Part shown: positions 10,781 to 28,349 of the stretch, one piece after another
Numbering within the stretch: position 1 is the stretch's first letter
Layout of the letters: each line of letters starts with the position of its first letter
Source: a virus
Virus record (IMG/VR): IMGVR_UViG_3300033145_001804
Span: 1-38,615 of that record
DNA: 38,615 bases
Strand: one strand, 5' to 3'
The notes under the pieces: generated by a model
Databases searched by the model: none
Seen by the model: only the letters and a program-made list of their open reading frames with translations
Told to the model about the DNA's origin: nothing
Position numbers and translations under genes: made by a program

Positions 10781-10896
10781 AACTAAAATTTAATCAGCGA
10801 GAGCGGCCTGGGAGCTGCCATCTCGGAAATGAGACGCTGAGGTAAAACAGAGGTCCAGGGAGGCTCATTGCGAATATTCGCAATGGGCCTTTTTTT
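10781..10896 (+). ncRNA. Structured RNA with pseudoknot and terminator, copy 1
   Basis: Predicted folds: P1 TCAGCG (10794-10799) with CGCTGA (10835-10840); P2 GCGGC (10803-10807) with GCTGC (10814-10818) and loop CTGGGA; P3 TCTCG with TGAGA and a GAAA tetraloop. A pseudoknot joins the P2 loop CTGGG to TCCAG near 10854-10858. A 12-bp terminator hairpin and T-tract follow. A second copy at 28235 differs at several paired positions yet keeps the pairs. It lies between the early/middle block and the lysis genes. I recognise no named RNA family. Confidence 0.75.
10862..10896 (+). terminator. Strong Rho-independent terminator within RNA copy 1
   Basis: GGCTCATTGCGA pairs with TCGCAATGGGCC (one G-T), followed by seven T. 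It would end early/middle transcription unless bypassed. Confidence 0.85.
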
Positions 10897-10904
10897 ATTG
10901 GAAA

Positions 10905-10962
10905 AGATTGAGGGGTCCGACAACCCTTCAGCCTTTTACCTTCAACCTGACAACCTAAAAAA
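10905..10962. repeat. Family B repeat, pyrimidine arm with variant core
   Basis: TTGAGGGGTCCGACAACCC, a variant of the inverted 22-base core, is followed by CCTTCAGCCTTTTACCTTCA. It lies between the RNA element and the lysozyme-like gene. Confidence 0.6.
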
Positions 10963-10975
10963 GAGCGGAGCGACC

Positions 10976-11443
10976 ATGTCCTTCGACAAAGAACAGTTCC
11001 AGGATCTGATTGAGCGGACGTTGAGAAATCTGGACATGTATTCGGATTCTGCGGTGAAGCTTCTATTAGGTACCGCCGCCCAGGAGTCGCATTTCGGGAC
11101 ATATCTCAGGCAGGTCGGAGGCGGTCCGGCTCTGGGCGTATTTCAGATGGAACCGGATACTGAGATAGATATCTGGAGCAACTACCTTCACCGCAAGCTG
11201 AAGGTCGCCTGCAGGCTTGAGGTCTATACCAGCGTGGGGTGTTCATCCGTGATCGCACTCGAGGGCAACCTGCCCTATCAGATCCTAATGGCGAGGCTTC
11301 ATTATCTCAGGGTCCCGGAGCCTCTGCCCGATGCAGAAGATGTTGAGGGCCTTGCGCGATATTGGAAACAGTACTGGAATACTCCTTGTGGAAAAGGCTC
11401 GGAAGAAGAGTTTATTGAGAATTATAAAAGGCATATAAAATAA
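10976..11443 (+). CDS. Lysozyme/transglycosylase-like endolysin
   Basis: This 155-residue protein begins at ATG 10976 after GAGCGGAGCGACC; a longer in-frame start would run through repeats and is rejected. AAQESHFG puts a likely catalytic Glu at residue 37, as in lysozyme-like and soluble lytic transglycosylase folds, with GALGVFQME-type residues after it (about 51-60). It would cleave peptidoglycan at lysis. Followed by a holin-like gene, it opens the lysis cassette. It has no signal peptide, so it needs a holin. Confidence 0.75.
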   Translation: MSFDKEQFQDLIERTLRNLDMYSDSAVKLLLGTAAQESHFGTYLRQVGGGPALGVFQMEPDTEIDIWSNYLHRKLKVACRLEVYTSVGCSSVIALEGNLPYQILMARLHYLRVPEPLPDAEDVEGLARYWKQYWNTPCGKGSEEEFIENYKRHIK

Positions 11444-11522
11444 AAGGATTCAAGGGGTCAAGGATTCAAGGGGTCAAGTGCTTTCACTCGAATCCTCGAA
11501 CCCTCGAATCCTCGAATCCTTA
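11443..11522. repeat. Family C composite, inverted arms
   Basis: GGATTCAAGGGGTCAAGG units are followed by complementary CGAATCCTCGAACCC units around GTGCTTTCACT. The arms can fold into a hairpin after the endolysin stop codon. Confidence 0.75.
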
Positions 11523-11547
11523 AAATAGCGACCGAAAGGAGCACATC

Positions 11548-11937
11548 ATGGAGATACTTCAAGAACTTGCAGCCACCATACTGCCGACAATCATTACTAT
11601 GCTGTCAGGTCTGTTTTCCTGGGGGATGGTAGAGCTGACCAAATACATCCGTACAAAAACAAAAAACGAAGCCATAAACGATGCTGTCTCGCACATCTGC
11701 CACACGGTTGACACTACTGTCAAAGAGATCGCTCAGACCACAGCCAAAGAATATAAAAAATCACGCGGCAAACTGTCCTTTGAAGCTACACAGCGCCTGA
11801 AAGCTCTGGCTGTATCGAAAGTTAAAGCACAGATCCCGGCCGCAATTAACAAAATAGCAGGCATGGCAGTCAATGATGTTGGCAATTTTATCGAGGCAAA
11901 GATCGAGAAGGCGGTGCTGGAGTTAAAAAACAGGTAG
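11548..11937 (+). CDS. Holin, LL-H type
   Basis: This 129-residue protein has one N-terminal transmembrane segment (about residues 10-30, IITMLSGLFSWGMVEL). A long helical cytoplasmic part follows (KNEAINDAVSHICHTVDTTV, then KAQIPAAINKIAG), the pattern of superfamily 6 (LL-H) holins. It would form the lesion that releases the endolysin. ACCGAAAGGAGCACATC is the leader box and ribosome binding site. Confidence 0.75.
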   Translation: MEILQELAATILPTIITMLSGLFSWGMVELTKYIRTKTKNEAINDAVSHICHTVDTTVKEIAQTTAKEYKKSRGKLSFEATQRLKALAVSKVKAQIPAAINKIAGMAVNDVGNFIEAKIEKAVLELKNR

Positions 11938-12130
11938 AAGGTTAAAGGTAAAAGTATATAGGTAGAAGGTGGAAGGTAGAAGACTGAAGGGAATAAAAAC
12001 AGGTAGAAGGTAGAAGGTAAAAGACTGGAGGTAAAAATTGAGGATACCGACAGCCCTTCAGCCTTCAGCCTTCAGCCTTCAACATAAACCCCTTTTTAAC
12101 CCTTCAGCCTTCAGCCTTCAGCCTTCAGCC
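11938..12130. repeat. Composite family B element, inverted core
   Basis: Several purine heptads (GGTAGAAG) are followed by the exact reverse complement of the 22-base core at 12035-12056, then pyrimidine heptads (CCTTCAG) repeated to 12130. The core is opposite in orientation to the copies at 7609 and 20585. Confidence 0.75.
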
Positions 12131-12156
12131 TAATAAGCGACCGAAGGGAGCGACTT

Positions 12157-12513
12157 ATGGATGGGATGATCACTTTCGGAGTTTTAGGGCAATTGCTTCA
12201 GGCATACGGGCCTTTTGGCATCATTGTTGTGGTCTGGTACTTCGACATCAGGGCTATGAGAAAACAGAACGAGCAGTATGTCAAAGACATGGCGGATGTC
12301 ATGAACAAGCATGAGAAATATATGGAAGAAATCCGCGTCATGTATAAAAACAACGTCAAATTGGTTGAGGGCTATGAGTCGCTTGCAGGTGATTTGAAAT
12401 CTATCATTGTAATGAACACGGAGGTAATCACCACGCAGACAGAGGCCATTAAGCAAAATCAATTCTGCCCGTCACAGCGGGTAGAGAAAAAGAATATTCA
12501 GGTAGAAGGTTAA
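12157..12513 (+). CDS. Membrane-anchored coiled-coil protein of the lysis cassette
   Basis: This 118-residue protein has one transmembrane helix (about residues 17-32, YGPFGIIVVVWYF) and then a long coiled coil. Position after the holin and this topology fit an inner-membrane spanin, but no partner lipoprotein spanin gene is adjacent. The last residues (IQVEG) come from a family B repeat. The leader box GCGACCGAAGGGAGCGACTT precedes the start. Confidence 0.6.
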   Translation: MDGMITFGVLGQLLQAYGPFGIIVVVWYFDIRAMRKQNEQYVKDMADVMNKHEKYMEEIRVMYKNNVKLVEGYESLAGDLKSIIVMNTEVITTQTEAIKQNQFCPSQRVEKKNIQVEG

Positions 12514-12600
12514 AGGTAAAAGGCCGAAGGTAATAAAAGCAGGGGTCGGGGATCAGGAAGGAACTTGAATCCTTGAACCCTCGAATCCTTGAATCCTTAA
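12503..12600. repeat. Mixed repeat island (families B, E and C)
   Basis: GTAGAAGGTTAAAGG, then GGGGTCGGGGATCAGG, then CTTGAATCC/CTCGAATCC units occupy the whole spacer before the leader box at 12602. Confidence 0.7.
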
Positions 12601-12622
12601 CAGAGCGACCGAAGGGAGCAAC

Positions 12623-12871
12623 ATGAACGAAAGATTAAAATTTCAAGGCAGGCTCGTGGTCAAAGATAAGGAAGCAAAGCGGCTTAAGATCCGCATAGAA
12701 AGCAATCGTGACAGCTTGCGGGAAGCGCTTGACCCGACCGCTCCGGTTAATGAACTCGAAGAGAGCAGAATATCTACATTAGGCATTACGCTGGCCGGTC
12801 AGATTGTCGAATATAATAATATTCTTGCCGAGATGAAGGCGATTGAAAAAGCGCTGGGGACAGACGGGTAG
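12623..12871 (+). CDS. Small helical phage protein before terminase
   Basis: The 82 residues are almost all helical and charged, with a coiled-coil pattern. Similar small proteins often precede the small terminase gene in Mu-like phages. The leader box GCGACCGAAGGGAGCAAC lies directly before the ATG. No function is assigned. Confidence 0.65.
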   Translation: MNERLKFQGRLVVKDKEAKRLKIRIESNRDSLREALDPTAPVNELEESRISTLGITLAGQIVEYNNILAEMKAIEKALGTDG

Positions 12872-12930
12872 AAGGTCGAAGGGCCTTTGAATCCTTGAAC
12901 CCTCGAATCCTCGAATCCTTGAATCCTTAG
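12868..12930 (+). repeat. Mixed repeat island (families B and C)
   Basis: GTAGAAGGTCGAAGGG is followed by five variants of CTTGAATCC. A degenerate leader box with GAGCGTAGCGAAGCGAGCGA leads to the next ATG. Confidence 0.7.
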
Positions 12931-12955
12931 ATGGAGCGTAGCGAAGCGAGCGACA

Positions 12956-13537
12956 ATGAAAGAAATATCATGGGAATTGAGAGAGCAGGCGGAAGAGCTG
13001 TATATCCTTGACGGCAAAACACACGAGGAGATTGCCGGGATTACGGGGATCGCTGTCCAGACGCTGAAGGGCTGGTCCGCCGATGAAGGGTGGACGGAAA
13101 AACGCAGGGAATACCGGCAGCAGATTGCGGATATCCGGCGGGATACGGTCAGGCTCAGGAGTGGGTTGCTTAAACAGGCACTGAACAGCCTGAACCCCCA
13201 GCACGTTTACGCTTTTACAAATATCGAGCAGATGGCTGTGAAGGCTGCAAGGGAAGAAATACCGGCAGCTCCCCTGGCGGTCGATCCAAAAACAATAAAA
13301 ACACCGGAAGATGCCATTGATGCTCTTCAGGATCTTATAGAGAACAAGCTGAACGCCATGCTGACCATGCCGGGCGCAATAAGCCTGGCTAAAATAAAGG
13401 AAATAAAACAGGCGCAGGAGCTGATCGATAAGATGAAAAAGAAATATAAACCTGAAACAAGAGAAAAAGAATCTGCGACCGAAGAGGATAAACAGCGGCT
13501 GATAGATGAAGTCGACAGAATTTTAGGAGTGAGATGA
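12956..13537 (+). CDS. Terminase small subunit
   Basis: This 193-residue protein has an N-terminal helix-turn-helix (about 1-50, HEEIAGITGIAVQTLKGW, with DEGWTEKRREYR after it) typical of small terminase subunits. A helical middle and a charged C-terminal part for oligomer or large-subunit contact follow. Its stop overlaps the large subunit start (ATGA), so the two are translationally coupled. In Mu-like phages it recognises DNA for headful packaging. Confidence 0.8.
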   Translation: MKEISWELREQAEELYILDGKTHEEIAGITGIAVQTLKGWSADEGWTEKRREYRQQIADIRRDTVRLRSGLLKQALNSLNPQHVYAFTNIEQMAVKAAREEIPAAPLAVDPKTIKTPEDAIDALQDLIENKLNAMLTMPGAISLAKIKEIKQAQELIDKMKKKYKPETREKESATEEDKQRLIDEVDRILGVR

Positions 13538-15033
13538 AAGAAAGCGCATACTTTCTGCCGTATCAAATAGCCTGGCTGAACGATAACTCCAGGCGCAAAA
13601 TCTGGGAAAAGTCCAGGCGGATCGGTGCGACCTATGTTCAGTCTTATGAGGATGTCAGGGATTGCGTAAAAAGTCCCGGCCTTCCGGTATGGTTTTCCTC
13701 CGCTGATGAATCAGCAGCAAAGGAATACATTATTTACTGCGAACAATGGGCAAAGATATTCAAGGCGGCCGGCCAAATTCTGTCTATAAAAGAGGAAGTC
13801 CTGGACGAAAAGAACGGGGTCAAGGCCCTTATTATCCGATTCGCAAACGGTTCCAGAATCCACGGCCTCTCAAGCAATCCGACAGCTTTCAGATCAAAGG
13901 GCGGCAAAACAAACCTTGACGAATTCGACTGGCATAAAGATCAGCCGAAAATGTATGCGGCCGCAAAACCATGCGTAACATGGGGCTATGATCTGCGGAT
14001 TCTGAGCACTTATCAGTCAAGCGCAAGCTTGTATGCGCAATTTGTCAAAGACTCAAAAAAAGCCGTAGCAGACGGCAGGAAACCGACATTTTCCCTGCAC
14101 ACGGTCACAATATTTGATGCAGTTGAGCAAGGGCTTCTCGACAAGATCATGGGCCGCAAGACCACAAAAGAGGAACGGGAAGCATGGCTGGCCGAAGAAA
14201 GAGAAGCCTGTGGAGATGAAAACATATGGCTTCAGGAATATTGCTGTATTCCGGTCAGTGAAAACGACGCATTCCTGACCTGGGATATGATCCGGCCATG
14301 TGAAGATGACAATGCAGGCAAACCCGAACTCGCAGGAGACGGCACGTTCTATATCGGCAATGATATCGGCAGGCGTCACGATCTGGCTGTGTTCTGGGTG
14401 GACGAGAAGGTCGGTGATGTATTCTGGACAAGGGAAGTTGTGAAGCTGAAAGGCGCTTCTTTTGCTGCACAGGATGATGAACTTGACCGGCTTGTAGATG
14501 TTTATAATCCGAAAAGGATCTGTATGGATCAGACCGGCATGGGCGAAAAACCGGTTGAGGATGCAAAAAAAAGATACGGGGAATACAGAGTCGAAGGTCT
14601 GCTCTTTACCGGCCCGGTCAAACAGGAGCTTGCATTCGGGTTGCGCCGCCGGTTTGAAGATCGCCAGGTACGAATACCTGTAGATCAGGACATCCGCCGC
14701 GCGCATCATGCAGTTAAAAAGACTGTTACCGCGGCCGGTAATGTCAGATTTGATGCGGACAGAACTGACAAGGGCCACGCAGATGAATTCTGGGCACATG
14801 CCCTGTCCGTTCATGCCGGTACAGATTCGATTGGACCGGCCGTATGCCTCGGTAGAGATCCGGAAAAAAGAGAAACAATGAGCGGTCGTAAATCGGGGAT
14901 CAGGCGGCTGGGTATGGGAATCAGGGGGCGAATAAGGCAAGGAAGGGATGAACATCGAACATCGAACATCGAACATCCAACGTCGAATAAAGAAACAAAT
15001 AACCGGAGCGAAGCGAATGAGCGGAATATTTGA
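13534..15033 (+). CDS. Terminase large subunit (packaging ATPase and nuclease)
   Basis: This 499-residue protein pumps DNA into the prohead and cuts it. The ATPase has a deviant Walker A (KSRRIGAT, 26-33) and Walker B NLDE (127-130). The nuclease acids are likely D277 (GNDIG), D332 (CMDQTG) and D417 (GHADEF). The C-terminal ~45 residues are encoded by GGGATCAGG-like and family A repeats (DEHRTSNIEHPTSN) and read on into the portal gene, overlapping it by 17 bases. This extension is probably not part of the core fold. Confidence 0.93.
   Translation: MKESAYFLPYQIAWLNDNSRRKIWEKSRRIGATYVQSYEDVRDCVKSPGLPVWFSSADESAAKEYIIYCEQWAKIFKAAGQILSIKEEVLDEKNGVKALIIRFANGSRIHGLSSNPTAFRSKGGKTNLDEFDWHKDQPKMYAAAKPCVTWGYDLRILSTYQSSASLYAQFVKDSKKAVADGRKPTFSLHTVTIFDAVEQGLLDKIMGRKTTKEEREAWLAEEREACGDENIWLQEYCCIPVSENDAFLTWDMIRPCEDDNAGKPELAGDGTFYIGNDIGRRHDLAVFWVDEKVGDVFWTREVVKLKGASFAAQDDELDRLVDVYNPKRICMDQTGMGEKPVEDAKKRYGEYRVEGLLFTGPVKQELAFGLRRRFEDRQVRIPVDQDIRRAHHAVKKTVTAAGNVRFDADRTDKGHADEFWAHALSVHAGTDSIGPAVCLGRDPEKRETMSGRKSGIRRLGMGIRGRIRQGRDEHRTSNIEHPTSNKETNNRSEANERNI
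14948..14990 (+). repeat. Family A repeat inside the terminase gene
   Basis: AACATCGAA units run in frame in the terminase C-terminus. They could also be read in another frame as a longer portal start, which I reject. Confidence 0.8.
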
Positions 15034-16651
15034 ATACATTGCCAGGATGATGGCGCCGGGGCTTAAAGATGATGATCAGATCCGGGAGATAATTGCGGAG
15101 GAGATTAAGCAGGCAAAGATGGCTTTGCCGATCAGCGCCAATTATGACCCGAATAATGACGGGTACAGGCGGCTGTCAGACGCAGATCAGAGGCGGCGTG
15201 ATTTAATGCCCATCGCGCAGGATCGGATGTTTGAGATCATCTATTTTATGTGGGATTCGTCTGCCATGATGCGGCGATTAGCGATCATGGACAGGAGCTT
15301 TCTGTTCGGCGGCAAAGTTAAGGTTACGTCTGACGATGATGAAGTACAAAAAATTATAGACCGGTTCTGGAAAGACCCTGAAAACCGGATGGATATAGAT
15401 TTTCCCGATATGGCAATGTGGCTCGGTCTGTTAGGCGAGCAATGCTGGCCTGTGAATGTAAATGAAATTAACGGTCATGTGAGGCTGGGATACGTGGACC
15501 CGACTAATATCGCGGACGTATATGTCAACCCCATGAATGTAAAGCAGGTCATGCAGGTGAAGATGCAGGGAAGCGCGGGGCGCGAAGGAAAACGATACGC
15601 GGTGATCAGAAAAGATTACAACATGCGATCAAAATCTTATGACCGGCTGGTCGGTGACTGCTTCTTTTTCTCCATCAACCGGCCGTTGAATTCCCCACGG
15701 GGGAGATCTGATTTTCTGACGCTGGTGGACTGGATAGACGCTCTGGAACGATATGGATTCAATTTTCTGGAACGGGCGGAATTGCTGAATAATTTTATAT
15801 GGGATGTGCAGTTGAAGGGGATGGATGAAGAGCAGATGAGGGCATGGCTGAGGGATAACCCTCCTCCTGAGCCGGGATCTATGAGGGCGCATAATGAAAA
15901 TGTGGAATGGAAGGCAGTGGCGCCGGACCTGAAATCAACAGACGCATCAAAGGGTTTTGACATGGGGAAGGCTTTTGTCATGGGCGCGGCCGGACGGCCT
16001 CCGTCATGGTTCGGCGAGGGTGGAAAAGCATATCAGACAGAGGCGGATCAGTTCGGCCAGGTACCTGTAATGGATCTGGAACAGCGCCAGGGATACCTGA
16101 CGCACATCCTGGAGATGGTTATTCAGTTTGTCATCGATCAGGCGGTGATCGCAAAAAGGCTTACACCGGCTGCGGCTGAGGCCGGGTTCTCGGTCAATAT
16201 GCCCGAGATCTCGAAAAAGGATCTCACAAAACTGGTGAACGGAGTGCCGCAATTAACAACAGCACTGACGATGGCGGAGCAGAGCAAGTGGATTACCAGG
16301 GATACGGCAACTAATATTTTTGCGTTTGTGAGCAGCAATCTTGGCTTTGAGATCGATGTGCAGGCACAGATTGATGCGGCGGGGGAAGCGGTACCTGATG
16401 ATGAAATAGATTATGAAGAAAAAGATGTGGTTCTTGAAAACGAGACCGGCGAAATAGCTAAGGTGTCGTTGAACGGCGCGCAGATCGCATCGCTGTTAAA
16501 GATCGTTCAGTCGGTCGCGGCCGGAACGCTGGAGCGAGCTTCAGCGCTGCAGATAATCACGACTGCATTCCCGATTGATACCGAAGCTGCTGAAAAAATT
16601 ATGGGCGGCGCCGGCAGAGGTTTTAAAATTAAAGAGGCGGAAAAGGTTTAA
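15017..16651 (+). CDS. Portal protein
   Basis: This 544-residue protein lies directly after the large terminase gene. The N-terminal half has features seen in portal proteins (WDSSAMMRRLAIMDRSFLFG; GLLGEQCWPVNV; GYVDPTNIADVYVNP). The C-terminal part is helical. I chose ATG 15017 because the reading upstream is a repeat; GGAGCGAAGCGA precedes it. It does not look like the Mu gp29 (DUF935) family, which suggests head genes from another lineage. It forms the dodecameric ring for DNA entry and tail attachment. Confidence 0.85.
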   Translation: MSGIFEYIARMMAPGLKDDDQIREIIAEEIKQAKMALPISANYDPNNDGYRRLSDADQRRRDLMPIAQDRMFEIIYFMWDSSAMMRRLAIMDRSFLFGGKVKVTSDDDEVQKIIDRFWKDPENRMDIDFPDMAMWLGLLGEQCWPVNVNEINGHVRLGYVDPTNIADVYVNPMNVKQVMQVKMQGSAGREGKRYAVIRKDYNMRSKSYDRLVGDCFFFSINRPLNSPRGRSDFLTLVDWIDALERYGFNFLERAELLNNFIWDVQLKGMDEEQMRAWLRDNPPPEPGSMRAHNENVEWKAVAPDLKSTDASKGFDMGKAFVMGAAGRPPSWFGEGGKAYQTEADQFGQVPVMDLEQRQGYLTHILEMVIQFVIDQAVIAKRLTPAAAEAGFSVNMPEISKKDLTKLVNGVPQLTTALTMAEQSKWITRDTATNIFAFVSSNLGFEIDVQAQIDAAGEAVPDDEIDYEEKDVVLENETGEIAKVSLNGAQIASLLKIVQSVAAGTLERASALQIITTAFPIDTEAAEKIMGGAGRGFKIKEAEKV

Positions 16652-16652
16652 G

Positions 16653-16730
16653 GGATGAACGTCGAACATCGAACGTCCAACATCGAACATCGAATGAAAA
16701 AAACCTTCAGCCTTCAGCCTAAAAACCTTC
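16653..16730 (+). repeat. Family A repeat followed by a family B pyrimidine arm
   Basis: GATGAACGTCGAACATCG units (to 16697) are followed by CCTTCAGCCTTCAGCC and CCTTCAACCT, between the portal and gpF-like genes. Confidence 0.8.
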
Positions 16731-16746
16731 AACCTTGAGCGAAGCG

Positions 16747-17583
16747 ATGACTGCTAAAGAACGAGCATTTAATAAAAAAGTAAAAGAGCTGATCAAAAAG
16801 GCGAACAGCATGGAGGATGCCGCTGTGAAGCGGGCTGTTAAATTATTAGCCAGTGCGCGCAAGGATGTGGCGGCTGCTGTGGCGACAACCGAGTGGGAGG
16901 CATACAGGCTGCCTGAGTTAAAAGCGGCGATAGATCGGACGATGAGGGAGTTTGGAGCTAAATACGGCGTGGATCTGAGAGATGCGCAGATGGAATTCTG
17001 GAATCACGGGATCGATATGGTGGATGCTCCGATCAGGAAGGTCGGGATATATGCGGTGATCCCCGAAATCGATATGACGGCGCTTGGAATTATGCAGGAT
17101 TTTTCAGCCGACCTGGTTGTTAATCTTGGCAAGGACGCGGCGCGCAAAATCAGCAATGAAATGAGCATGGGAATTATCGGTCAGAAATCTCCATATGAGG
17201 TCATGCAGGCGGTGGGCCGGAATTTGAAAGATAAGAGCATTTTTAAAAGCATTACTGCCAGGGCGGAAATGATTACCAGGCAGGAGACCGGCAGGGTGAT
17301 GGAAATGGCAAGTCAGGCAAGGAGAGAACGGGCTGCTGAGGTTGTGCCGGGGCTTGGAAAAGAATGGAAGCACGGCGCATTGTCAAAGGTCCCGAGGATA
17401 TCGCACCTTGCGGCTGATGGTCAGACAAGAAAGGTAAATGAGGATTTTAATGTGGGAGGAGAGGAGCTTTCCTTTCCGCGAGATCCTAAAGGGTCGGCGA
17501 AGAATACGATCGGATGTAATTGTTATTCGGTGCCCTGGCATCCGAACTGGGATGAGGCGGTTAAGCTGCAAGAAGCAGCTTGA
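16747..17583 (+). CDS. Phage Mu gpF-like head morphogenesis protein
   Basis: The 278 residues have a helical N-terminal two-thirds. The C-terminal gpF-like/minor head protein domain has MITRQETGRV (near residue 180), HGALSKVPRISHLAADGQTR and a final GCNCYSVP zinc-like end. I chose ATG 16747; a TTG at 16735 is in frame. The protein is a minor capsid component placed after the portal, as in Mu and SPP1-type heads. GAGCGAAGCG before the start is a degenerate leader box without a clear ribosome binding site. Confidence 0.85.
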   Translation: MTAKERAFNKKVKELIKKANSMEDAAVKRAVKLLASARKDVAAAVATTEWEAYRLPELKAAIDRTMREFGAKYGVDLRDAQMEFWNHGIDMVDAPIRKVGIYAVIPEIDMTALGIMQDFSADLVVNLGKDAARKISNEMSMGIIGQKSPYEVMQAVGRNLKDKSIFKSITARAEMITRQETGRVMEMASQARRERAAEVVPGLGKEWKHGALSKVPRISHLAADGQTRKVNEDFNVGGEELSFPRDPKGSAKNTIGCNCYSVPWHPNWDEAVKLQEAA

Positions 17584-17587
17584 AGGG

Positions 17588-22314: not shown

Positions 22315-22358
22315 AGGTAGCTTGAATCCTCGACCCCTTGAATCCTTGAATCCTGAAT
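22287..22358 (+). repeat. Repeat island (families B and C)
   Basis: AAGGCTGAAGGCTGAAGG overlaps the end of the ligase-like gene; CTTGAATCC variants follow up to the leader box at 22360. Confidence 0.75.
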
Positions 22359-22382
22359 TAGAGCGACCGAAGGGAGCGATTA

Positions 22383-22583
22383 ATGGCTAATGGAATTGTG
22401 AAATGGTTTAACGACCAGAAAGGTTATGGTTTTATTGAGCAGGAAGACGGTCCGGATGTATTTGTTCATCATTCGGGTATTAACGCATCCGGCTTCAGGT
22501 CTCTTAATGATGGGGATCGTGTTACCTTTGACATCGAGCAGGGGCAAAAAGGTACTGCCGCCGTGAATGTGACGGTGGTGTAA
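22383..22583 (+). CDS. Cold shock protein (CspA family)
   Basis: The 66 residues form one complete cold shock domain with RNP1 KGYGFI (13-18) and RNP2 VFVHH (26-30), plus IVKWFN at the start. It binds single-stranded RNA or DNA and can act as an RNA chaperone or antiterminator. The leader box GCGACCGAAGGGAGCGATTA precedes it. It is an unusual passenger in a structural operon and might melt phage RNA structures such as the two-copy element; that is inference. Confidence 0.92.
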
Positions 22584-22655
22584 AAGAAGGGCGAAAGGCT
22601 GAAGGCTGAAGGTAGCTTGAACCCTTGAACCCTTGAATCCTTGAATCCTGAATAG
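22584..22655 (+). repeat. Repeat island (families B and C)
   Basis: GAAAGGCTGAAGGCTGAAGG is followed by four CTTGAACCC/CTTGAATCC units before a leader box at 22655-22689. Confidence 0.75.
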
Positions 22656-22689
22656 AGCGAAGCGAAAAGGCGACGAAGGAGCGAGCAAC

Positions 22690-22833
22690 ATGGGCTATTC
22701 AAGAGAATTTTTAAAAGTCGTTATATGGGTGCTTTCAGGCATCCTGATGGTGGTTGTCGCGGCAACGTATAGCAGGACGATATCCGATTTTTTTGAAATG
22801 GTCATAAAGAATTATTCACGGGGTTTATCATGA
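22690..22833 (+). CDS. Small membrane protein
   Basis: A 47-residue frame from ATG 22690 to TGA 22831-22833 has one transmembrane helix (VVIWVLSGILMVVVAATY). A GAAGGAGCGAGCAAC leader precedes it, and it overlaps the next start by ATGA. Function unknown. Confidence 0.6.
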   Translation: MGYSREFLKVVIWVLSGILMVVVAATYSRTISDFFEMVIKNYSRGLS

Positions 22834-22961
22834 TAGAGAAACGCAGTTTAACAAATCGTTTTTGGGACAATGAAAATTTAGTATTACTGCTGATTGCGTT
22901 TATTTTTCTTGTCGGCGGGGTCTGTGGCACGTTGGTATTGATAGCAACGAATATTCTATAA
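22830..22961 (+). CDS. Small membrane protein, coupled to the previous gene
   Basis: A 43-residue frame from ATG 22830 to TAA 22959-22961 has one transmembrane helix (LVLLLIAFIFLVGGVCGTL). The ATGA overlap implies translational coupling. Two adjacent single-span proteins may work as a pair, but no function is recognised. Confidence 0.6.
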   Translation: MIEKRSLTNRFWDNENLVLLLIAFIFLVGGVCGTLVLIATNIL

Positions 22962-22975
22962 CAAGGTGGTATAAA

Positions 22976-23614
22976 ATGGCATTAATTAAAGGTTCACAAA
23001 CCACACTGGACGAATGGGCGGTAACGGCCAATGCTGCTGTAAGACTTGGAACAGAGCTTGATGTAAGTTTAGCGTATTCTTGCACTTTGCATATTAAAGC
23101 TGCATTGGGCGAGGCTGTCGCAAGTACCGGACAGCCTGAAGTCATAATACAGATTACAGGCGAGGCTTCACCGGCAAAAGATGACTGGACAAATTATATG
23201 CGCCTTGTCGGGCCATCAGGCACACCTAAAGTCCCGACCCTGAATGCTACCGAACCGGCAGGAGAAACCAGCCTTGCCACATTAAATCCGGCAACGGCAG
23301 GTATTGATAATGACGGGAAGTTCAAGTTTCTGCGTCATGCGACCATTGCAAATTCCGAGGTAGTATTTCAGACAGCTAACAGTGGAGATGGCGGAGATAC
23401 AATTACAATATTAGATGGTCTTGCGAACGAACAGAACACGAATACAATAGTTGTTGATTTTGATGATGCGAGGGTTGAGGCAGTATCTCAATGGACGATT
23501 ACGATAGATTGTATTGCATTAAGCAGGATTAGGATTATCTATAACGCTGATTACGATACAGACGGCCCAGATGTAGTTTGTCATTCAGCCTACACGCTTA
23601 ACACAGGTATCTAA
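22976..23614 (+). CDS. Putative virion surface protein
   Basis: This 212-residue protein starts after AAGGTGG. It is beta-rich with many Thr, Ala and Gly and no signal peptide. It is followed by a LamG-like gene with a TAATG overlap. GC content is lower than in the flanking head and tail genes. Probably a decoration or adhesion protein, inferred from context. Confidence 0.6.
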   Translation: MALIKGSQTTLDEWAVTANAAVRLGTELDVSLAYSCTLHIKAALGEAVASTGQPEVIIQITGEASPAKDDWTNYMRLVGPSGTPKVPTLNATEPAGETSLATLNPATAGIDNDGKFKFLRHATIANSEVVFQTANSGDGGDTITILDGLANEQNTNTIVVDFDDARVEAVSQWTITIDCIALSRIRIIYNADYDTDGPDVVCHSAYTLNTGI

Positions 23615-24561
23615 TGGCGACATTCCTTAGACATAGTTATAATATACCAACAAATCGTTGGGGCAGCGATGCTGATATTCGATATGCCTTAAAGGAGAAT
23701 TGCGAGAAGATATTTGGTATAAATTATGAAAATCTTGTTCTTGCAATGCCTATGTTTAATCAGACTTGGAACAGGCTAAAGGATTACAGCAATTCTAAAA
23801 ATGATGGCGTTCCTCATGGTGGGAATTGGACTCAATTAGGATTAACCCTTGACGGAACAGACGATTATGTTGACCTTGGAATATCCGGCGGAAATTTAAT
23901 CGAAGGTACCGCTTATACTTTAACCATTAATTTTCATCCTTATACTTGGGCTCAAAATTACGAGGGGGTAATTACTAAAGATCAAAACTCCCCTTGGTCT
24001 TTCTCTTTAAGAAAAAGCGGTGTTACAGGAGGCATTCAGTGGGAAATGAATGGGAGTTCATTACAACTCGGTAATATTTGGGAAGCTTGGGATTATATTA
24101 TAACCCTTGCGTTTGATGCTTCGACTGGAAGAGAGGGCTATGTTAACGGCGTTTTGGCGAATAGTGATGCCTACAAAACACAGGTTACTTCAAATAACGA
24201 TTTTTTATTTATTGGAACGGATTATTGGTTCGATACCGCAAGACATTTTGACGGTCATATAAAAGGAGTTTCCATTTTTGATGTGGCTTTAACACCCGAT
24301 CAAATAGCTCTATTAAACGACTTGCCATACGCTTTATACCAGCCGATATCAAGACCGATTTATTTCTCTATACCTGCAAGACATATAAAAGCATTGGCCG
24401 ATACAATAAATCTATCAGATGCCGAGATAAACATTCTTATCAGTCCGTTATGCGCGTTTGCGGCGGCAAATAAAACTTTTAATTTTAACGCTAAATCAAA
24501 AGACTTTAATTTTAACGCAAGTCTGAAAACATTTAACTTCACAGCAAGGATAAAACCATGA
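23614..24561 (+). CDS. LamG/concanavalin-like virion adhesin
   Basis: This 315-residue protein has an N-terminal part of about 70 residues, then a LamG/concanavalin A-like fold (about 70-230: LTLDGTDDYVDLG, YTLTINFHPYTW, GREGYVNGVL, HFDGHIKGVSIFDVALTPDQ). The C-terminus has three FNFNA/FNFTA repeats. Such domains bind sugars. It overlaps both neighbours by 1-4 bases. AT-rich compared with the capsid genes, which suggests recent acquisition. Confidence 0.75.
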   Translation: MATFLRHSYNIPTNRWGSDADIRYALKENCEKIFGINYENLVLAMPMFNQTWNRLKDYSNSKNDGVPHGGNWTQLGLTLDGTDDYVDLGISGGNLIEGTAYTLTINFHPYTWAQNYEGVITKDQNSPWSFSLRKSGVTGGIQWEMNGSSLQLGNIWEAWDYIITLAFDASTGREGYVNGVLANSDAYKTQVTSNNDFLFIGTDYWFDTARHFDGHIKGVSIFDVALTPDQIALLNDLPYALYQPISRPIYFSIPARHIKALADTINLSDAEINILISPLCAFAAANKTFNFNAKSKDFNFNASLKTFNFTARIKP

Positions 24562-25070
24562 TTAAAGACGGAATGAGAATTACAGACGAGATAAGGTTTC
24601 AGGCCGGCAAGGGTTTTTTTGATGCGATCGGCATGAAAGGAATAATGGTCGCGGAGCTTTTTGATAGCGATGGCGATTTAAAAGATCGCAGGGAAGTTCA
24701 TAATACCGTTACGACTCTTGCCCACAAGATGGCGGCGGATCAACTTCTGGCATCACCGGCGGTAGTAACTCCCGGATGGATGGAAGTCGGTACAGGCAGC
24801 GGTCAGGGCGCAGGTGATACTATTCTTGATGCTTATATTGCCGGTTCAAGAACCGCGCTGGATTCAAAGACAAGGGGCGGAGCGGATGCGATCATCACGA
24901 TGGTTTGCACTATCCCTGCAGGCACGGGAACCGGAGCGATCACGGAAGCCGGCACATTTAATGTCGTCACACAGAATACAACCGATCTGATTACATACGC
25001 CGATTTTTCGGTCATTAACAAGGGCGCCGCCGACAGCCTGGTCATAACGTGGACTTTGACTTTTGCATAG
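24558..25070 (+). CDS. Putative virion structural protein
   Basis: This 170-residue protein has a pattern common in phage structural proteins (WMEVGTGSGQGAGDTILDAY, followed by beta-rich ITEAGTFNVVT). It overlaps the LamG gene by ATGA. Probably a decoration or fibre-associated protein. Confidence 0.65.
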   Translation: MIKDGMRITDEIRFQAGKGFFDAIGMKGIMVAELFDSDGDLKDRREVHNTVTTLAHKMAADQLLASPAVVTPGWMEVGTGSGQGAGDTILDAYIAGSRTALDSKTRGGADAIITMVCTIPAGTGTGAITEAGTFNVVTQNTTDLITYADFSVINKGAADSLVITWTLTFA

Positions 25071-25130
25071 GGGAGGTTTTTACCTTGAGCCTTGAGCCTT
25101 GAGCGGAGCGACCAAAGGGAGCGACATGAC

Positions 25131-25481
25131 ATGAAAGATTCATTTCAGGGAGTCGAGTCAATAATATTACAGCCCGGATCAGAGACCGTTCCGTATACAT
25201 TTACCTTTGCGGCAGCATCGAGCGCAACGGCAAACGATGGTTCAATACCTTACGGCTCGACAATTTCCGGAGCCGATGTGACAGCGTTTGACAAGGACGG
25301 CGCTGACAGGACTTCCGAGATGGTTGTATCGGAAACCAACACGACCACAGTCGTTACCATTAGTTTAAAATATCCGGCAACCACAGGCAACGGCCGCTAT
25401 TCGCTTGAGATTGTTTTGACGTTATCGACAGGGGCGAAAATGGAGTTTGATTTTAACCGCGTGTACGCGAGGGATAAGTGA
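25131..25481 (+). CDS. Small beta-rich structural protein
   Basis: The 116 residues form a likely Ig-like/beta-sandwich domain (about 20-110: GADVTAFDKDGADRTSEMVV, TTTVVTISLKYPAT). ATG 25131 is chosen; ATG 25126 is out of frame and the longer in-frame start runs through the leader box. GCGACCAAAGGGAGCGACAT lies before it. Confidence 0.65.
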   Translation: MKDSFQGVESIILQPGSETVPYTFTFAAASSATANDGSIPYGSTISGADVTAFDKDGADRTSEMVVSETNTTTVVTISLKYPATTGNGRYSLEIVLTLSTGAKMEFDFNRVYARDK

Positions 25482-25572
25482 AAGGACAGGCTGAAGGCTG
25501 AAGACTGAAGGAAAAAATAAAAATTAAGGTTTCAAACAGCCCCTTAGCCTTCAGTCTAAAAACCTTCAACCT
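25482..25572. repeat. Composite family B element
   Basis: GGCTGAAGGCTGAAGACTGAAGG, an AAAAATTAAGG core-like stretch and the complementary CCTTAGCCTTCAGTC...CCTTCAACC arm fold back on each other. Confidence 0.7.
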
Positions 25573-25593
25573 GCGACTGAAAGGAGCATAATC

Positions 25594-26286
25594 TTGAGTA
25601 CCAGATTTGATTATATGGACGCGATTGACGGCTTTGTCGGGGGAGACGTCCCGCTCAAAGATCCGGAGAAAATCATAGCGATCGGCCTGGCAATGAAAGA
25701 ACATTCCAAGCAAAGGCCGCTGGTTAAGGTTGAGGATGAGGACGGAGACGGCGGGTTTGATTACGCTGTGACGGATCTTGAATTCTGGTCGGACGGGTTT
25801 TCCGTGATCAAGACGGTGGAATATCCTGTGGATGATGCCGATGAGACCCCGGATGTGCTTCAGGATAACGCATGGCGGATGTATGAAACGCCGGACGGGA
25901 ATTTTCTAAGGTTTTTAGAGAATGCGCCGTCGAGTGACGAGGATTTCCGCGTGGCATATACGGCCCTGCATACCTGTACTGATACGGCATGTACGGTTAA
26001 GGATTTTGACGAGGAGGCTGTTCAGGCGCTGGCTGCGGGTCATTTCTGCAACCTGCTGTCAACTTATTACGCGCAGACACAGGACAGCACGATAAACGCG
26101 GACAGTGTGGATCACGGCTCAAAAGGCCGGGAATATGCGGCCAGGGCAAAGACTTTCCGGGCTGTATATTTTAATCATATCGGGATTAAAGAGGGGCAGG
26201 CGGCGGCGGCATCGGTTACAAGGGATCAGGATGTAAAGCCGTCATGGCGCGGAGATGGACTGACGCATCCGAGGAGGAACAGATGA
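25594..26286 (+). CDS. Head-tail connector-like protein
   Basis: The 230 residues start at TTG 25594, which follows ACTGAAAGGAGCATAATC. The C-terminal half (AVQALAAGHFCNLLSTYYAQ, GREYAARAKTFRAVY) is helical and resembles head-tail adaptors. The N-terminal half has acidic loops (DEDGDGG). Position before the gp10-like and tail terminator genes supports a connector role. The stop codon is supplied by the family A repeat. Confidence 0.65.
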   Translation: MSTRFDYMDAIDGFVGGDVPLKDPEKIIAIGLAMKEHSKQRPLVKVEDEDGDGGFDYAVTDLEFWSDGFSVIKTVEYPVDDADETPDVLQDNAWRMYETPDGNFLRFLENAPSSDEDFRVAYTALHTCTDTACTVKDFDEEAVQALAAGHFCNLLSTYYAQTQDSTINADSVDHGSKGREYAARAKTFRAVYFNHIGIKEGQAAAASVTRDQDVKPSWRGDGLTHPRRNR

Positions 26287-26325
26287 ACATCGAACATCGA
26301 ACGTCCAACATCGAATTTTGAATGA
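26284..26325 (+). repeat. Family A repeat
   Basis: Its first TGA (26284-26286) is the stop codon of the connector-like gene. It contains the CGTCC variant and ends TTTTGAATGAAGG, giving the next ribosome binding site. Confidence 0.85.
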
Positions 26326-26335
26326 AGGAAAAAGA

Positions 26336-26596
26336 TTGAAAAAGATATCACTCATAATGATGATCGTATTTATGCTGGCTGGCTGCGGGGTTAAAACCGT
26401 TATAACAGATCCGGAGGGAAAGCAGTGGGTTGTGCGAAGCAAGTCTGATGCGCGAGTCATTATAATGCAGGATAAAACACAGAATAAAACGACGCTTGAA
26501 GTTAACAACCAGGGCAAGACGAACTGGGTGGAAGGCTTGATGCAGTATATTCTGGCAAAGCCGGATATTACACTGTCGAATAAAGAGGGAAGATAA
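26336..26596 (+). CDS. Small lipoprotein
   Basis: The 86 residues start at TTG 26336 after AAGGAAAAAG; a TTG at 26318 is also in frame. A lipobox MLAGC follows a short hydrophobic helix, so it should be lipidated and exported. The mature part is small and beta-like (EGKQWVVRSKSDARVIIM). It could be an outer-membrane spanin or a superinfection exclusion lipoprotein; it sits between connector and neck genes, far from the lysis cassette. Confidence 0.65.
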   Translation: MKKISLIMMIVFMLAGCGVKTVITDPEGKQWVVRSKSDARVIIMQDKTQNKTTLEVNNQGKTNWVEGLMQYILAKPDITLSNKEGR

Positions 26597-26597
26597 A

Positions 26598-26642
26598 AGA
26601 TGAACATCGAACATCGAACGTCCAACATCGAACATCGAATGG
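26598..26642 (+). repeat. Family A repeat
   Basis: The full form with CGTCC variant fills the gap between the lipoprotein and neck genes. Confidence 0.85.
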
Positions 26643-26648
26643 AAAAAA

Positions 26649-27149
26649 ATGCTTAAAACCAGAATCATGGTTGATTTGAGAGATCTTGAACGGCTGACGA
26701 TGATGTATCCTAAGATCTCGATGGATGTTCGTGAGTCTAAGCTGACCGAGGCAATGGCGCTTCTGGAACGTGCTGTAAAGCTGAAAACGCCTGAAGGAGC
26801 CGGGCCGATACATTTGAGGGATTCGATTCACCCGAAAGTGAGCATATCGGGCAAGAAGGTCAAGGGCTTATTAGGCACGCCGCTGGCGCATGGCGAGCCG
26901 AGAGAATTCGGCACAAAGCCGCATTTCCCACCGATCGGGCCGATACAGCACTGGGTGGAAAAGAAGCTGGGCAAATCAGGGGATGAGGCCAAATCGATAG
27001 CATTCGCGATAGCGATCACGATTGCGCGGCGCGGCACAAAGGGCGCGCATATGTTTGACAAGGGTTTTGAGGAAAACGAGGCGCAAGTCAAGCGGATACT
27101 GGAAAGCATACCGGCAGAAATAATTACAAGGCTAAGAAAAAACAGGTAA
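26649..27149 (+). CDS. HK97 gp10-like neck/tail completion protein
   Basis: This 166-residue protein matches the HK97-gp10-like family: EFGTKPHFPPIGPIQHWV (about 83-100), RRGTKGAHMFDKGFE near 127-141. It is also like Mu gpG virion morphogenesis proteins. It acts at the head-tail junction. It has no strong ribosome binding site; the repeat ends CGAATGGAAAAAA before ATG. Confidence 0.85.
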   Translation: MLKTRIMVDLRDLERLTMMYPKISMDVRESKLTEAMALLERAVKLKTPEGAGPIHLRDSIHPKVSISGKKVKGLLGTPLAHGEPREFGTKPHFPPIGPIQHWVEKKLGKSGDEAKSIAFAIAITIARRGTKGAHMFDKGFEENEAQVKRILESIPAEIITRLRKNR

Positions 27150-27285
27150 AAGGTAAAAGGTAGAAGACTGAAGGTAGTAAAAGCAGGTAGAAGGTAAAAG
27201 GTAGAAGACTGAAGTAAAAGATAAAAAATAGAAAATCAAGGGATTCAAACAGCCCTTCAGCCTTCAGCCTTCAACCTAAGCCCCT
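27147..27285. repeat. Composite family B element
   Basis: Two runs of purine heptads (GGTAAAAGGTAGAAG) and a pyrimidine arm (CCCTTCAGCCTTCAGCCTTC) fill the spacer, followed by the leader box GCGACCAAAGGGAGTAAACC. Confidence 0.75.
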
Positions 27286-27312
27286 TAATTAAGCGACCAA
27301 AGGGAGTAAACC

Positions 27313-27759
27313 ATGAGCGAGGTATTGATCAGGGCGCAGGTTAAAGCAATTCTTTCCGGCGTTTCCGGCATCGGCGTTGTGCATGATTATGAGCGGTGGG
27401 CGACTAACTGGACTAAGTATCTGGAGCTTTTCAGCACCGGGGGGCGGATTAACGGCTGGCAGATTACGCGCAAAAAGACTTCTGCAGTAACCGCATCCGT
27501 AACGCATGATTCCCGGAAACATACGTTTTTAATCCGGGGGATCTACGGGCTGAAAGACAGTGAAGCTACGGAGATCACATTTCAGGCTCTTATAGAATCT
27601 GTTTGCGCGGCGTTCAGATCTAAATATCAACTCAATGATACAGCCGATAATACCGAGCCGGTGCAGGTTGACCTGGTGGAAAACAGAGTGTTCGGGAATG
27701 TGCTCTGCCATTTTTGCGAGCTGACACTGATCGCTGAAGAATACGAAAACTGGAGTTAG
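27313..27759 (+). CDS. Tail terminator protein
   Basis: This 148-residue alpha/beta protein lies between the gp10-like and tail tube genes, where tail terminators (lambda gpU, HK97 gp-like) are found. N-terminal helix RAQVKAILSGV, beta strands (KHTFLIRGIYGL) and ITFQALIESVCAAFR fit this fold. It caps the finished tail tube. The assignment is by position and pattern. Confidence 0.65.
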   Translation: MSEVLIRAQVKAILSGVSGIGVVHDYERWATNWTKYLELFSTGGRINGWQITRKKTSAVTASVTHDSRKHTFLIRGIYGLKDSEATEITFQALIESVCAAFRSKYQLNDTADNTEPVQVDLVENRVFGNVLCHFCELTLIAEEYENWS

Positions 27760-27765
27760 ATAAAA

Positions 27766-27872
27766 AGCAGGTAGAAGGTTAAAGGTAAAAGGCCGAAGGC
27801 TGGAGGAACCCTTCAATTAAAAAAAGAGGATTCCAAACAACCTTCAGCCTTCAGCCTTCAACCTAAACCCCT
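27766..27872. repeat. Composite family B element
   Basis: Purine arm GGTAGAAGGTTAAAGG, GAGGAACCCTTCAATT core variant, and pyrimidine arm CCTTCAGCCTTCAGCCTTC, then a leader box. Confidence 0.75.
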
Positions 27873-27897
27873 AATAAACGACCGAAGGGAGCGACAC

Positions 27898-28137
27898 ATG
27901 ATACCATGCAGGGGAATACATGAAATCAGTTGTACGAGAAAAAGCGGATGTCTGCGCAATCTAAAAGCAAAAAATGTGCAGCCGGAATGTATGAGCTGCC
28001 CGGATGCACTGACGCAGATCCTCGATCTTGAGGGTAAGGTTATTTATGAACACAAAATCGGAAAAAAAGTCTCACGCAAAGGCGCAAAGGCGCAGTTGCC
28101 GGAAGAAAAGGTTGAAGGGAAAAAACAGGAAAAGTGA
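27898..28137 (+). CDS. Small cysteine-rich protein
   Basis: The 79 residues include six Cys (near 4, 12, 18, and CMSC near 31-34), probably zinc-binding. The C-terminus RKGAKAQ is encoded by a CGCAAAGGCG repeat and EKVEGKK by a family B repeat, so only about 60 residues are native. It sits just upstream of structured RNA copy 2, as the Com-like gene does for copy 1. Confidence 0.6.
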   Translation: MIPCRGIHEISCTRKSGCLRNLKAKNVQPECMSCPDALTQILDLEGKVIYEHKIGKKVSRKGAKAQLPEEKVEGKKQEK

Positions 28138-28228
28138 CAACAGGTAGAAGGTAAAAGGTAGAAGACTGAAGGAAAAGATTAAGGATTCAAAAAACCCTTC
28201 AGCCTTCAGTCTAAAAACCTTCAACCTG
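28138..28228. repeat. Composite family B element
   Basis: GGTAGAAGGTAAAAGGTAGAAG and the complementary CCCTTCAGCCTTCAGTC...CCTTCAACC arm lie upstream of RNA copy 2. This and the RNA explain the 332-base gene-free stretch 28138-28469. Confidence 0.75.
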
Positions 28229-28234
28229 ATAAGA

Positions 28235-28349
28235 AACTAAAATTTAATCAGCGAGAGCGGCCTGGGAGCTGCCTTCTCGGAAACGAGGCGCTGAGGTAAA
28301 AGGAGGCCCAGGGAGGCCCATTGCGGATATTCGCAGTGGGCCTTTTTTT
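28235..28349 (+). ncRNA. Structured RNA with pseudoknot and terminator, copy 2
   Basis: It is about 90 percent identical to copy 1 and folds the same way: P1 TCAGCG/CGCTGA, P2 GCGGC/GCTGC with loop CTGGGA, P3 TCTCG/CGAGG with a GAAA tetraloop, and a pseudoknot CTGGG/CCCAG. The terminator GGCCCATTGCG/CGCAGTGGGCC follows with seven T. Changes relative to copy 1 at paired sites (U-A to U-G, G-U to G-C, U-G to C-G) keep the pairs. It lies before the tail tube genes. Confidence 0.75.
28315..28349 (+). terminator. Strong Rho-independent terminator within RNA copy 2
   Basis: GGCCCATTGCG pairs with CGCAGTGGGCC around GATATT, followed by seven T. Confidence 0.85.

What the first reader, a model, noticed from the sequence alone, without database searches (positions are those of the whole stretch)
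10781..28349. Two copies of a pseudoknotted RNA that ends in a terminator, at two operon boundaries
Copies at 10781-10896 and 28235-28349 share a three-helix fold, a GAAA tetraloop, a loop-to-downstream pseudoknot and a terminator. Differences between copies fall at paired sites and keep pairing: pseudoknot G-U to G-C, P3 U-A to U-G and G-U to G-C, terminator U-G to C-G and others. One copy precedes the lysis genes, the other the tail genes. A structured RNA directly before a terminator suggests attenuation or processive antitermination (as with HK022 put RNA), or a ligand-sensing switch. I know of no named family that matches.
Basis: partly seen in the sequence, partly recalled or inferred. 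Interest (0 to 1): 0.87.

Follow-up and report, generated by a model that had tools for sequence, protein, structure and literature searches.

The report
Com-type antitermination switch in phage leader
Two copies of a folded RNA in a Mu-like phage each carry a pair of hairpin loops matching the binding site of the phage protein Com, the second loop built into a transcription stop signal; a Com-like gene sits just upstream, so Com probably switches on the late genes by blocking that stop.

Summary
Both copies are real (93% identical), unmatched in Rfam, and belong to a family found on contigs of 14 further phage lineages. The fold is well supported: 23 of 26 pairs vary on both sides. Instead there is a second hairpin whose 3' arm is also the terminator's 5' arm, so the two exclude each other. 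Its hexaloop and that of helix P2 share C-N-N-N-G-A closed by C-G, the published site of Com, a phage zinc-finger RNA-binding protein (PMC6483171). A Com-like four-cysteine gene ends 5 nt before copy 1. A search led by that protein gave 14 genuine loci; 14 of 14 carry the RNA, 5 on contigs not held before. Best reading: a terminator/antiterminator leader worked by a Com-like protein that opens the late operon, with a second checkpoint before the tail genes. It works like ANTAR dual-hexaloop switches but fails their loop rule (0 of 32). Binding and direction are inferred, not measured.

The parts
10584..10775 (+). Com-like four-cysteine protein, 63 aa; proposed RNA-binding antiterminator
   Evidence: homologues upstream of the element in the 15 main-family lineages; 14/14 in the protein-led test; distant relation to Com by PHROG/Pfam/hhalign of its family; AlphaFold model of four strands and a helix, mean pLDDT 81.9, read by me as a zinc ribbon
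10744..10773 (+). weak promoter-like site of copy 1: TTGCAT-18-TATCCT, overlapping the 3' end of the Com-like gene
   Evidence: read from sequence; not significant for this copy (one search lists another site as best there); 13 of 14 relatives have TTGACA, TTGACT or TTGCAA upstream (read)
10781..10896 (+). copy 1 of the leader RNA with terminator
   Evidence: R1 56.0 bits, E 1.8e-14
10794..10840 (+). copy 1 three-way junction: P1 10794-10799/10835-10840, AGA linker, P2 10803-10807/10814-10818, P3 10821-10825/10830-10834
   Evidence: covariation
10807..10814 (+). Com-type hexaloop 1, C[CUGGGA]G
   Evidence: motif from PMC6483171
10852..10865 (+). antiterminator hairpin HP2 with Com-type hexaloop 2, C[CAGGGA]G; its 3' arm is the terminator 5' arm
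10862..10896 (+). intrinsic terminator (stem 10862-10889, T-run 10890-10896)
10976..11443 (+). first gene after copy 1, perhaps a lysozyme (PHROG 3108, function unknown)
   Evidence: Pfam Phage_lysozyme2 only at E 0.057; holin follows at 11548
28235..28349 (+). copy 2 of the leader RNA with terminator; the duplication does not include the sequence upstream of copy 1
   Evidence: (R1 56.7 bits, E 1.1e-14)
28261..28268 (+). copy 2 Com-type hexaloop 1, C[CUGGGA]G
28305..28318 (+). copy 2 antiterminator hairpin HP2, loop CAGGGA
28315..28349 (+). copy 2 intrinsic terminator
28470..28904 (+). major tail protein, first gene after copy 2
   Evidence: PHROG 1407, E 1.1e-15

Best explanation
The element is a leader RNA with a terminator/antiterminator switch worked by a Com-like protein. 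Without the protein the terminator forms and transcription stops ahead of the late genes. The Com-like protein, encoded just upstream at the end of the early genes, binds the P2 hexaloop (held out by the three-way junction) and the same type of loop in HP2. Holding HP2 keeps its 3' arm from entering the terminator, so polymerase reads into the late genes. Copy 1 acts at the early/late boundary; copy 2, a duplication of the leader alone, is a second checkpoint before the tail genes. SHOWN: fold, covariation, shared arm, match of both loops to the published Com motif, linkage to a Com-like gene. INFERRED: that this protein binds this RNA, that binding causes readthrough, the timing, and the promoter.
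For: (1) 16 aligned elements: 23 of 26 pairs change on both sides, 96.5% of cells paired vs 70.1% shuffled, 0/500. (2) HP2 96.9% paired; the shared strand keeps partners on both sides (triples G-C-G, C-G-C, A-U-G). (3) Loops are C-N-N-N-G-A in 31 of 32 cells; the other is L135, whose HP2 loop has an extra C. This fits the published Com site. (4) The two loops of one element resemble each other: 11 mismatches vs 21.2 when reshuffled, p 0.0002; p 0.002 after collapsing one clade. (5) Window, both strands: 4 hairpins with this loop and at least 4 bp, all in the two copies; the 2.7 kb Mu com-mom stretch has 1, in the region PMC6483171 names as the Com target. (6) Protein-led search: 14/14 Com-like loci carry the RNA; 9 lie on contigs already held, 5 (lineages L127, L128, L135, L136) were first found this way. 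(7) In 80 terminase-anchored sources the RNA (R1, E<1e-12) and the Com-like protein (A9 profile, E<1e-20) occur in the same six; two of the six trained R1, and A9 was built from the same proteins. (8) Paired loops plus T-run: 0 hits in 109 loci without Com, 2.7 Mb of strand sequence. (9) L111, L123, L161 and L033 carry Com relatives and other leaders with Com-type loops at a terminator. (10) A gene within 700 nt downstream is an endolysin, of six PHROG families, in 8 of 10 lineages tested. (11) Mor/C: 0 of 16 element-bearing records vs 13 of 27 others.
Against: No binding or expression data. The protein family is distant from Com: the window protein has no Com match of its own at E<1, and hhalign against known Coms only gives 53%, E 1.4e-4. 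HP2 conservation is partly by selection: six lineages came from patterns that fix part of its loop and L073 from a descriptor that requires it; the P2 loop was in none of these. R1 was built from three members and A7 was fitted to its structure. L098 closes P2 with G-C; L136 has an A-A mismatch in P2. HP2 of copy 1 is weak alone (-1.2 kcal/mol). Promoters: only 4 of 15 lineages are individually below p 0.05; copy 1, copy 2 and L097 have no convincing one. Hairpins of this kind also occur by chance: 2.9 on average in random sequence like the window, 5 in all of Mu. Relatives L010, L012, L015, L016 show neither the element in the held stretch (L016 only a weak match) nor Mor, so other late switches exist. 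Com relatives in one bacterial order mostly lack such a leader. Lima et al., as told in PMC6483171, saw Com bind an RNA duplex, not the hairpin.
Confidence: 0.77

Rival explanations
1. The RNA acts directly on RNA polymerase in cis (like HK022 put) and needs no protein; the Com-like gene is a neighbour with another job, such as controlling a DNA-modification gene.
For: Two hairpins in a leader; strong intrinsic fold; Com's known role is at mom (PMC6483171).
Against: put-type elements act on terminators downstream (recalled); here the second hairpin lies inside the terminator itself. Conserved loop letters fit the Com motif, and the RNA was present in 14/14 protein-led loci.
Confidence: 0.07
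2. A different protein or a host ANTAR regulator works the dual hexaloops.
For: Same architecture: two hexaloop hairpins, the second overlapping the terminator (PMC8934654).
Against: A1/G4 rule met by 0 of 32 loops. No ANTAR match in 20 of 20 phage records, but no control genome rang, so this shows little.
Confidence: 0.05
3. Com-like binding lowers late expression (stabilises termination, or the short leader RNA titrates the protein) rather than causing readthrough.
For: The direction is not measured; the short terminated transcript would carry at least the P2 site.
Against: HP2 and terminator share an arm, so holding HP2 should hinder the terminator; in Mu, Com binding is held to melt an inhibitory structure (PMC6483171).
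Confidence: 0.08
4. A ligand-binding riboswitch with the junction as receptor.
For: A junction before a terminator is a common riboswitch layout (recalled).
Against: Stems and P3 loop vary; the conserved letters sit in two hexaloops and the AGA linker; downstream genes are mostly phage lysis genes of several families.
Confidence: 0.03

Closest known systems
Com/mom translational control of phage Mu (PF10122, PHROG 6417)
   Same: Small four-cysteine zinc protein; loop motif CC(N)2-3GAG in a hexaloop closed by C-G; site lies beside and partly over an inhibitory RNA structure (PMC6483171).
   Different: There the site lies at the start of a DNA-modification gene and translation is controlled; here paired loops sit at a transcription terminator ahead of late genes. 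The protein family is only distantly related in sequence.
ANTAR dual-hexaloop antitermination (EutV/eutP)
   Same: Two hexaloop hairpins, the second overlapping the terminator stem; protein binding prevents the terminator (PMC8934654).
   Different: Loop letters C1, G5, A6 instead of A1, G4 (0 of 32); first loop sits in a three-way junction and the linker is longer. An ANTAR gene was not seen, but that search had no positive control.
HIV Tat-TAR
   Same: PMC6483171 points out that the TAR loop fits the Com motif; its listed residues C30 to A35 are the same six letters as the window P2 loop.
   Different: Eukaryotic elongation control through Pol II factors; no terminator hairpin, no homology claimed.
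Late-operon antitermination by lambda Q at pR'/tR' (recalled)
   Same: An early-encoded protein lets polymerase pass a terminator just ahead of the lysis genes.
   Different: Q binds DNA at the promoter and loads on polymerase; here an RNA hairpin exchange is proposed.
HK022 put RNA (recalled)
   Same: Two-hairpin phage RNA linked to antitermination.
   Different: put works without a protein on distant terminators; here the hairpin is part of the terminator.

Membership tests
Com (PF10122 / PHROG 6417) protein | two cysteine pairs of a zinc ribbon | tested here: met
   four cysteines invariant in the 15 aligned relatives, CxxC and a second pair of varying spacing; zinc binding itself not testable
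Com (PF10122 / PHROG 6417) protein | profile match above the curated cut-off | tested here: not met
   best Pfam match 21.0 bits vs cut-off 22.9, for L111, outside the main family; 5 of 13 members match at E<1, not the window protein. PHROG 6417 matches 7 of 13 at E<1, best 2.7e-5, not the window protein. So filed as Com-like, not as Com.
Com (PF10122 / PHROG 6417) protein | nearby RNA with CC(N)2-3GAG hexaloop | tested here: met
Com (PF10122 / PHROG 6417) protein | gene overlaps or precedes a mom or methylase gene and controls its translation | tested here: not met
   next gene lies beyond a terminator and belongs to the late block; function not measured
ANTAR dual-hexaloop leader | A at position 1 and G at position 4 of each hexaloop | tested here: not met
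   0 of 32 loops
ANTAR dual-hexaloop leader | second hexaloop overlaps the terminator stem | tested here: met
ANTAR dual-hexaloop leader | ANTAR-domain protein in the system | tested here: inconclusive
   0 of 20 phage records, but no control genome rang; a host protein cannot be excluded
any Rfam 15 family | covariance-model match | tested here: not met
   nothing at either copy at E<5
HK022 put RNA | protein-independent processive antitermination | not testable with these tools
   -

The most novel reading that the evidence does not exclude
Com-family proteins are in general phage transcription antiterminators: a prokaryotic counterpart of Tat-TAR in which a zinc-ribbon protein reads a CNNNGA hexaloop built into a terminator. 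mom translation control in Mu would then be a side branch, and in these Mu-like phages the Com leader stands in for Mor/C as the late switch.
Probability: 0.38. Interest if true: 0.88.

Novelty: new variant of a known kind. Interest (0 to 1): 0.83.

Why it matters
It would give a role in transcription to a protein family known (to me, and in the paper read) as a translation activator, suggest how a group of transposable phages without a detectable Mor/C gene turns on late genes, and add a second kind of protein to the dual-hexaloop antiterminator design that I know only from ANTAR proteins. The parts are small (63 aa and about 116 nt), so the idea can be tested directly in an E. coli reporter or a purified transcription system, and it may offer an orthogonal genetic switch.

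Tried and rejected
Pseudoknot P2 loop to downstream CCAGG: rejected, complete only in the window copies. CsrA site (GGA in a hexaloop; recalled): rejected, since L013, L114, L116 and L128 have GAGA in both loops. ANTAR: loop rule fails. Rfam member: no match. Phage collection with the RNA, with the window protein and with the L123 protein: no match. First viral pattern: 3 hits, all unrelated. Genome pattern scan: 5 hits, none of the main family. R1 in 395 genomes of one phylum: 6 weak matches, best 28.8 bits (members 47.9-124). One of them, L148, has a single CNNNGA hairpin at about the place of its match, none has two there, and none has a Com relative in the held stretch at E<0.1; taken as chance. 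A9 in the same genomes: 2 weak matches inside long open frames, not followed up. Weak R1 matches in L016 and L029 lack paired loops and were dropped, as were the other R1 matches that score below 25 bits (L161, 22 bits, was kept for its loops; a few, such as L107, L106, L113, L122 and L121, have E<0.01 by the model). L138 and L139, returned by the protein-led search, were set aside by eye as other proteins; L139 still scores E 0.0025 with A9. Com relatives in the order of the Paenibacillus genome of L106 (9 of 296 genomes, 10 loci): 4 loci (L162, L167, L168, L169), alike in sequence, have a CUUAGA/CUAGA/CAAGA loop at a terminator 10-380 nt after Com, but the stem has an A-C mismatch; L163 has one weak candidate, the other 5 none within the held 1.5 kb. 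So the link is not universal in the wider Com family. Fold searches with the protein model: nothing at E<0.001 in PDB or BFVD. PDB by sequence: best 0.0031, a consensus zinc finger. The first version of the loop-resemblance test had a parsing fault; one search replaces it. The 'no Com' set wrongly held 17 loci with other Coms; one search repeats it without them.

Literature: searched for Com with antitermination or antiterminator in phages (one unrelated paper each; 109, 119: none), Mu-like late antitermination (2 papers) and related terms (12 papers), put RNA (none). These were seen as listings only and none describes this as far as the listing tells; subscription journals are mostly not held. 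Opened: PMC8934654 (passages) and PMC6483171 (outline, abstract, passages, first part of the Discussion).
Full report
OBSERVATION. The window is a 38.6 kb virus record of a Mu-like phage: transposase 3322-5631, DNA-transposition protein 6290-7003, GemA 7696-8118, holin 11548, terminase 13534-15033, portal 14948, major tail 28470. The two copies (10781-10907, 28235-28361) are 93% identical, fold better than all 200 shuffles and have no Rfam match at E<5. Over 127 nt they differ by 8 substitutions and one internal gap; the sequences upstream of the repeat do not align.

FINDING RELATIVES. Terminase relatives (79 loci) and tail-protein relatives (9 loci) were searched with a profile of the two copies; L013, L014, L051 and L055 showed matches at E<0.01, 2.2-2.9 kb upstream of the terminase, the place of copy 1. 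L073 came by a structure descriptor. Pattern scans of IMG/VR added L097, L098, L100 (9 of 9 hits genuine) and L114, L116, L120 (23 stretches, of which 15 main family, 2 divergent L111/L123, 6 unrelated). A covariance model R1 from three members (L051, L055, L100) finds the others at 47.9-65.6 bits, including both window copies at E about 1e-14. In 395 bacterial genomes of one phylum its best score is 28.8 bits. No second copy was found at the tail genes of relatives (L088-L096).

ANATOMY. A7 aligns 16 elements of 15 lineages, of which L114, L116, L127 and L128 are near relatives. P1 (6 bp), AGA, P2 (4-5 bp with hexaloop), usually CA, P3 (variable), P1', a linker, HP2 (4 bp with hexaloop), terminator. 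Of 26 pairs 23 have two-sided changes; 96.5% of cells pair, 70.1% in shuffles, and every slid version drops to 36-46%. The alignment was fitted to the model, which favours the structure. HP2, which was not in the model, pairs in 96.9% of cells, with G-C, C-G and A-U at one position. Its 3' arm also pairs with the terminator 3' arm, and the triple positions change together (G-C-G, C-G-C, A-U-G). The C-G-C form is confined to the four near relatives, so these are few independent events. The pseudoknot fails.

THE LOOPS. Both hexaloops read C-N-N-N-G-A (31 of 32 cells; the other is L135, whose two loops both have an extra C). P2 is closed by C-G in 15 of 16, not in L098. The two loops of an element match each other more than those of other elements (p 0.0002; 0.002 with three near relatives left out), as expected of one shared partner. 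Bias to note: fixed part of HP2 in seven lineages; the P2 loop and the four protein-found lineages are free of it.

THE PARTNER. A small four-cysteine ORF ends at 10775, 5 nt before the copy 1 repeat. Homologues lie upstream of the element in all 15 main-family lineages: next to it in 14 (stop codon from 31 nt before it to, in L097, 63 nt inside it), 1.25 kb away in L120 (as L134). Among the window and 79 terminase loci the RNA and this protein occur in the same six sources; two of the six trained R1, and the protein profile was built from the same proteins. A search led by the protein alone (A6, itself made of element-linked proteins) returned 16 loci, 2 of them set aside as other proteins; 14 of 14 remaining carry the RNA. 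Nine lie on contigs already held; five are new (lineages L127, L128, L135, L136; a later RNA pattern, also met L127 and L128). The protein family is Com-like: PHROG 6417 'translational regulator' matches 7 of 13 members at E<1, best 2.7e-5; Pfam Com 5 of 13, best 2.2e-4 for L111, below the cut-off; hhalign 92%, E 6e-7 against Coms including L111/L123 but 53%, E 1.4e-4 against known Coms alone. The window protein itself matches neither profile. L111 and L123 are 32-37% identical to Mu Com and have a simpler leader with two such loops.

Independently, PMC6483171 (abstract, passages and first part of the Discussion read) reports that Com binds CC(N)2-3GAG in a hexaloop closed by C-G, that 868 of 999 selected RNAs carried a two-part motif, and that GA is crucial. 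The window, both strands, holds four hairpins with that loop and a stem of at least 4 bp: the four of the two copies; random sequence of like dinucleotide content gives 0-6, mean 2.9, so the number is not unusual but the places are. The Mu com-mom stretch holds one, in the region the paper names as the Com target, though all of Mu holds five. B3, JD024 and UMP151 have one 26-32 nt before their modification genes, among 4, 7 and 7 in all; Chuche has none. Paired loops with a T-run: no hit in 109 loci without Com (2.7 Mb of strand sequence) nor in 17 loci with other Coms, against 35 of 41 loci with the element or a divergent leader (many of the 41 repeat the same contigs or were found by RNA patterns).

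OTHER ARCHITECTURES. L161 has three tandem loops before a terminator, with a weak Com match (E 0.0029 over 140 loci) about 1.5 kb upstream. L033 has a Com-like ORF (E 2.3e-7) followed by two CAGAGA loops with 3-bp stems and a terminator (read by eye). In the order of a Paenibacillus genome, 4 of 10 Com loci, alike in sequence, have a single weak-stemmed loop at a terminator.

CONTEXT. In 10 of the 14 relatives I chose one gene within 700 nt downstream; 8 are endolysins of six PHROG families, L013 matched head proteases, L100 nothing. Mor/C is absent from 16 of 16 element-bearing records and present in 13 of 27 others, Mu included (Fisher 0.0006), but many records are fragments, two lineages are counted twice, and relatives without the element also lack Mor. 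Upstream, 13 of 14 relatives have TTGACA, TTGACT or TTGCAA (read); the summed best promoter score of 15 lineages exceeds all 400 random sets (135 vs 121.6 +- 3.0), but only 4 of 15 are below p 0.05 alone. In L051 and L073 the hexamer is kept although read in different codon frames (read). Copy 1 has a weak version, copy 2 none that convinces.

MECHANISM. Terminator -17 to -30 kcal/mol against HP2 -1.2 to -5.6: HP2 forms first in the growing chain but should lose to the terminator unless held. A protein bound at P2 and HP2 would hold it. Copy 2 would act on transcripts arriving from upstream. This resembles what ANTAR proteins do at eut (PMC8934654, passages read), but the loop rule does not fit.

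VERDICT. Classed as a new variant of a known kind, because protein-held dual-hexaloop antitermination is known; the protein family, loop code, junction and late-phage setting were not met in the searches named here.

Noticed in passing
window, about 2630-34000, many intergenic gaps: Many intergenic gaps are filled with short tandem or inverted repeat units (for example GAACATCGAACATCGAACGTCC and AGGTAGAAGGTAAAAGG). Origin and role unexplained.
   Followed up: no
window 5932-6147 and 10318-10533: An 81% identical 216-nt DNA repeat links gene 5825-6280 with gene 10322-10591, just upstream of the Com-like gene.
   Followed up: no
window 27898-28137: Small cysteine-containing protein just before copy 2, conserved in L088, L089 and L090, in which R1 finds no convincing leader RNA.
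   Followed up: partly
L106, L162, L167, L168, L169: Com relatives of Paenibacillus kin followed by a terminator whose first arm overlaps a CC(N)2-3GAG loop; possible single-site version.
   Followed up: partly
L161 reverse strand 5474-5530: Three tandem Com-type loops before a terminator with a good promoter-like site upstream.
   Followed up: partly
L097 upstream of the element: A direct repeat (GAGAAAACTGGTACACTACGAAACAAT) in place of the usual TTGACA/TTGCAA.
   Followed up: no
L010, L012, L015, L016, L019-L021: Relatives by terminase with no confident R1 match in the held stretch and no Mor/C match; their late switch is unknown.
   Followed up: no
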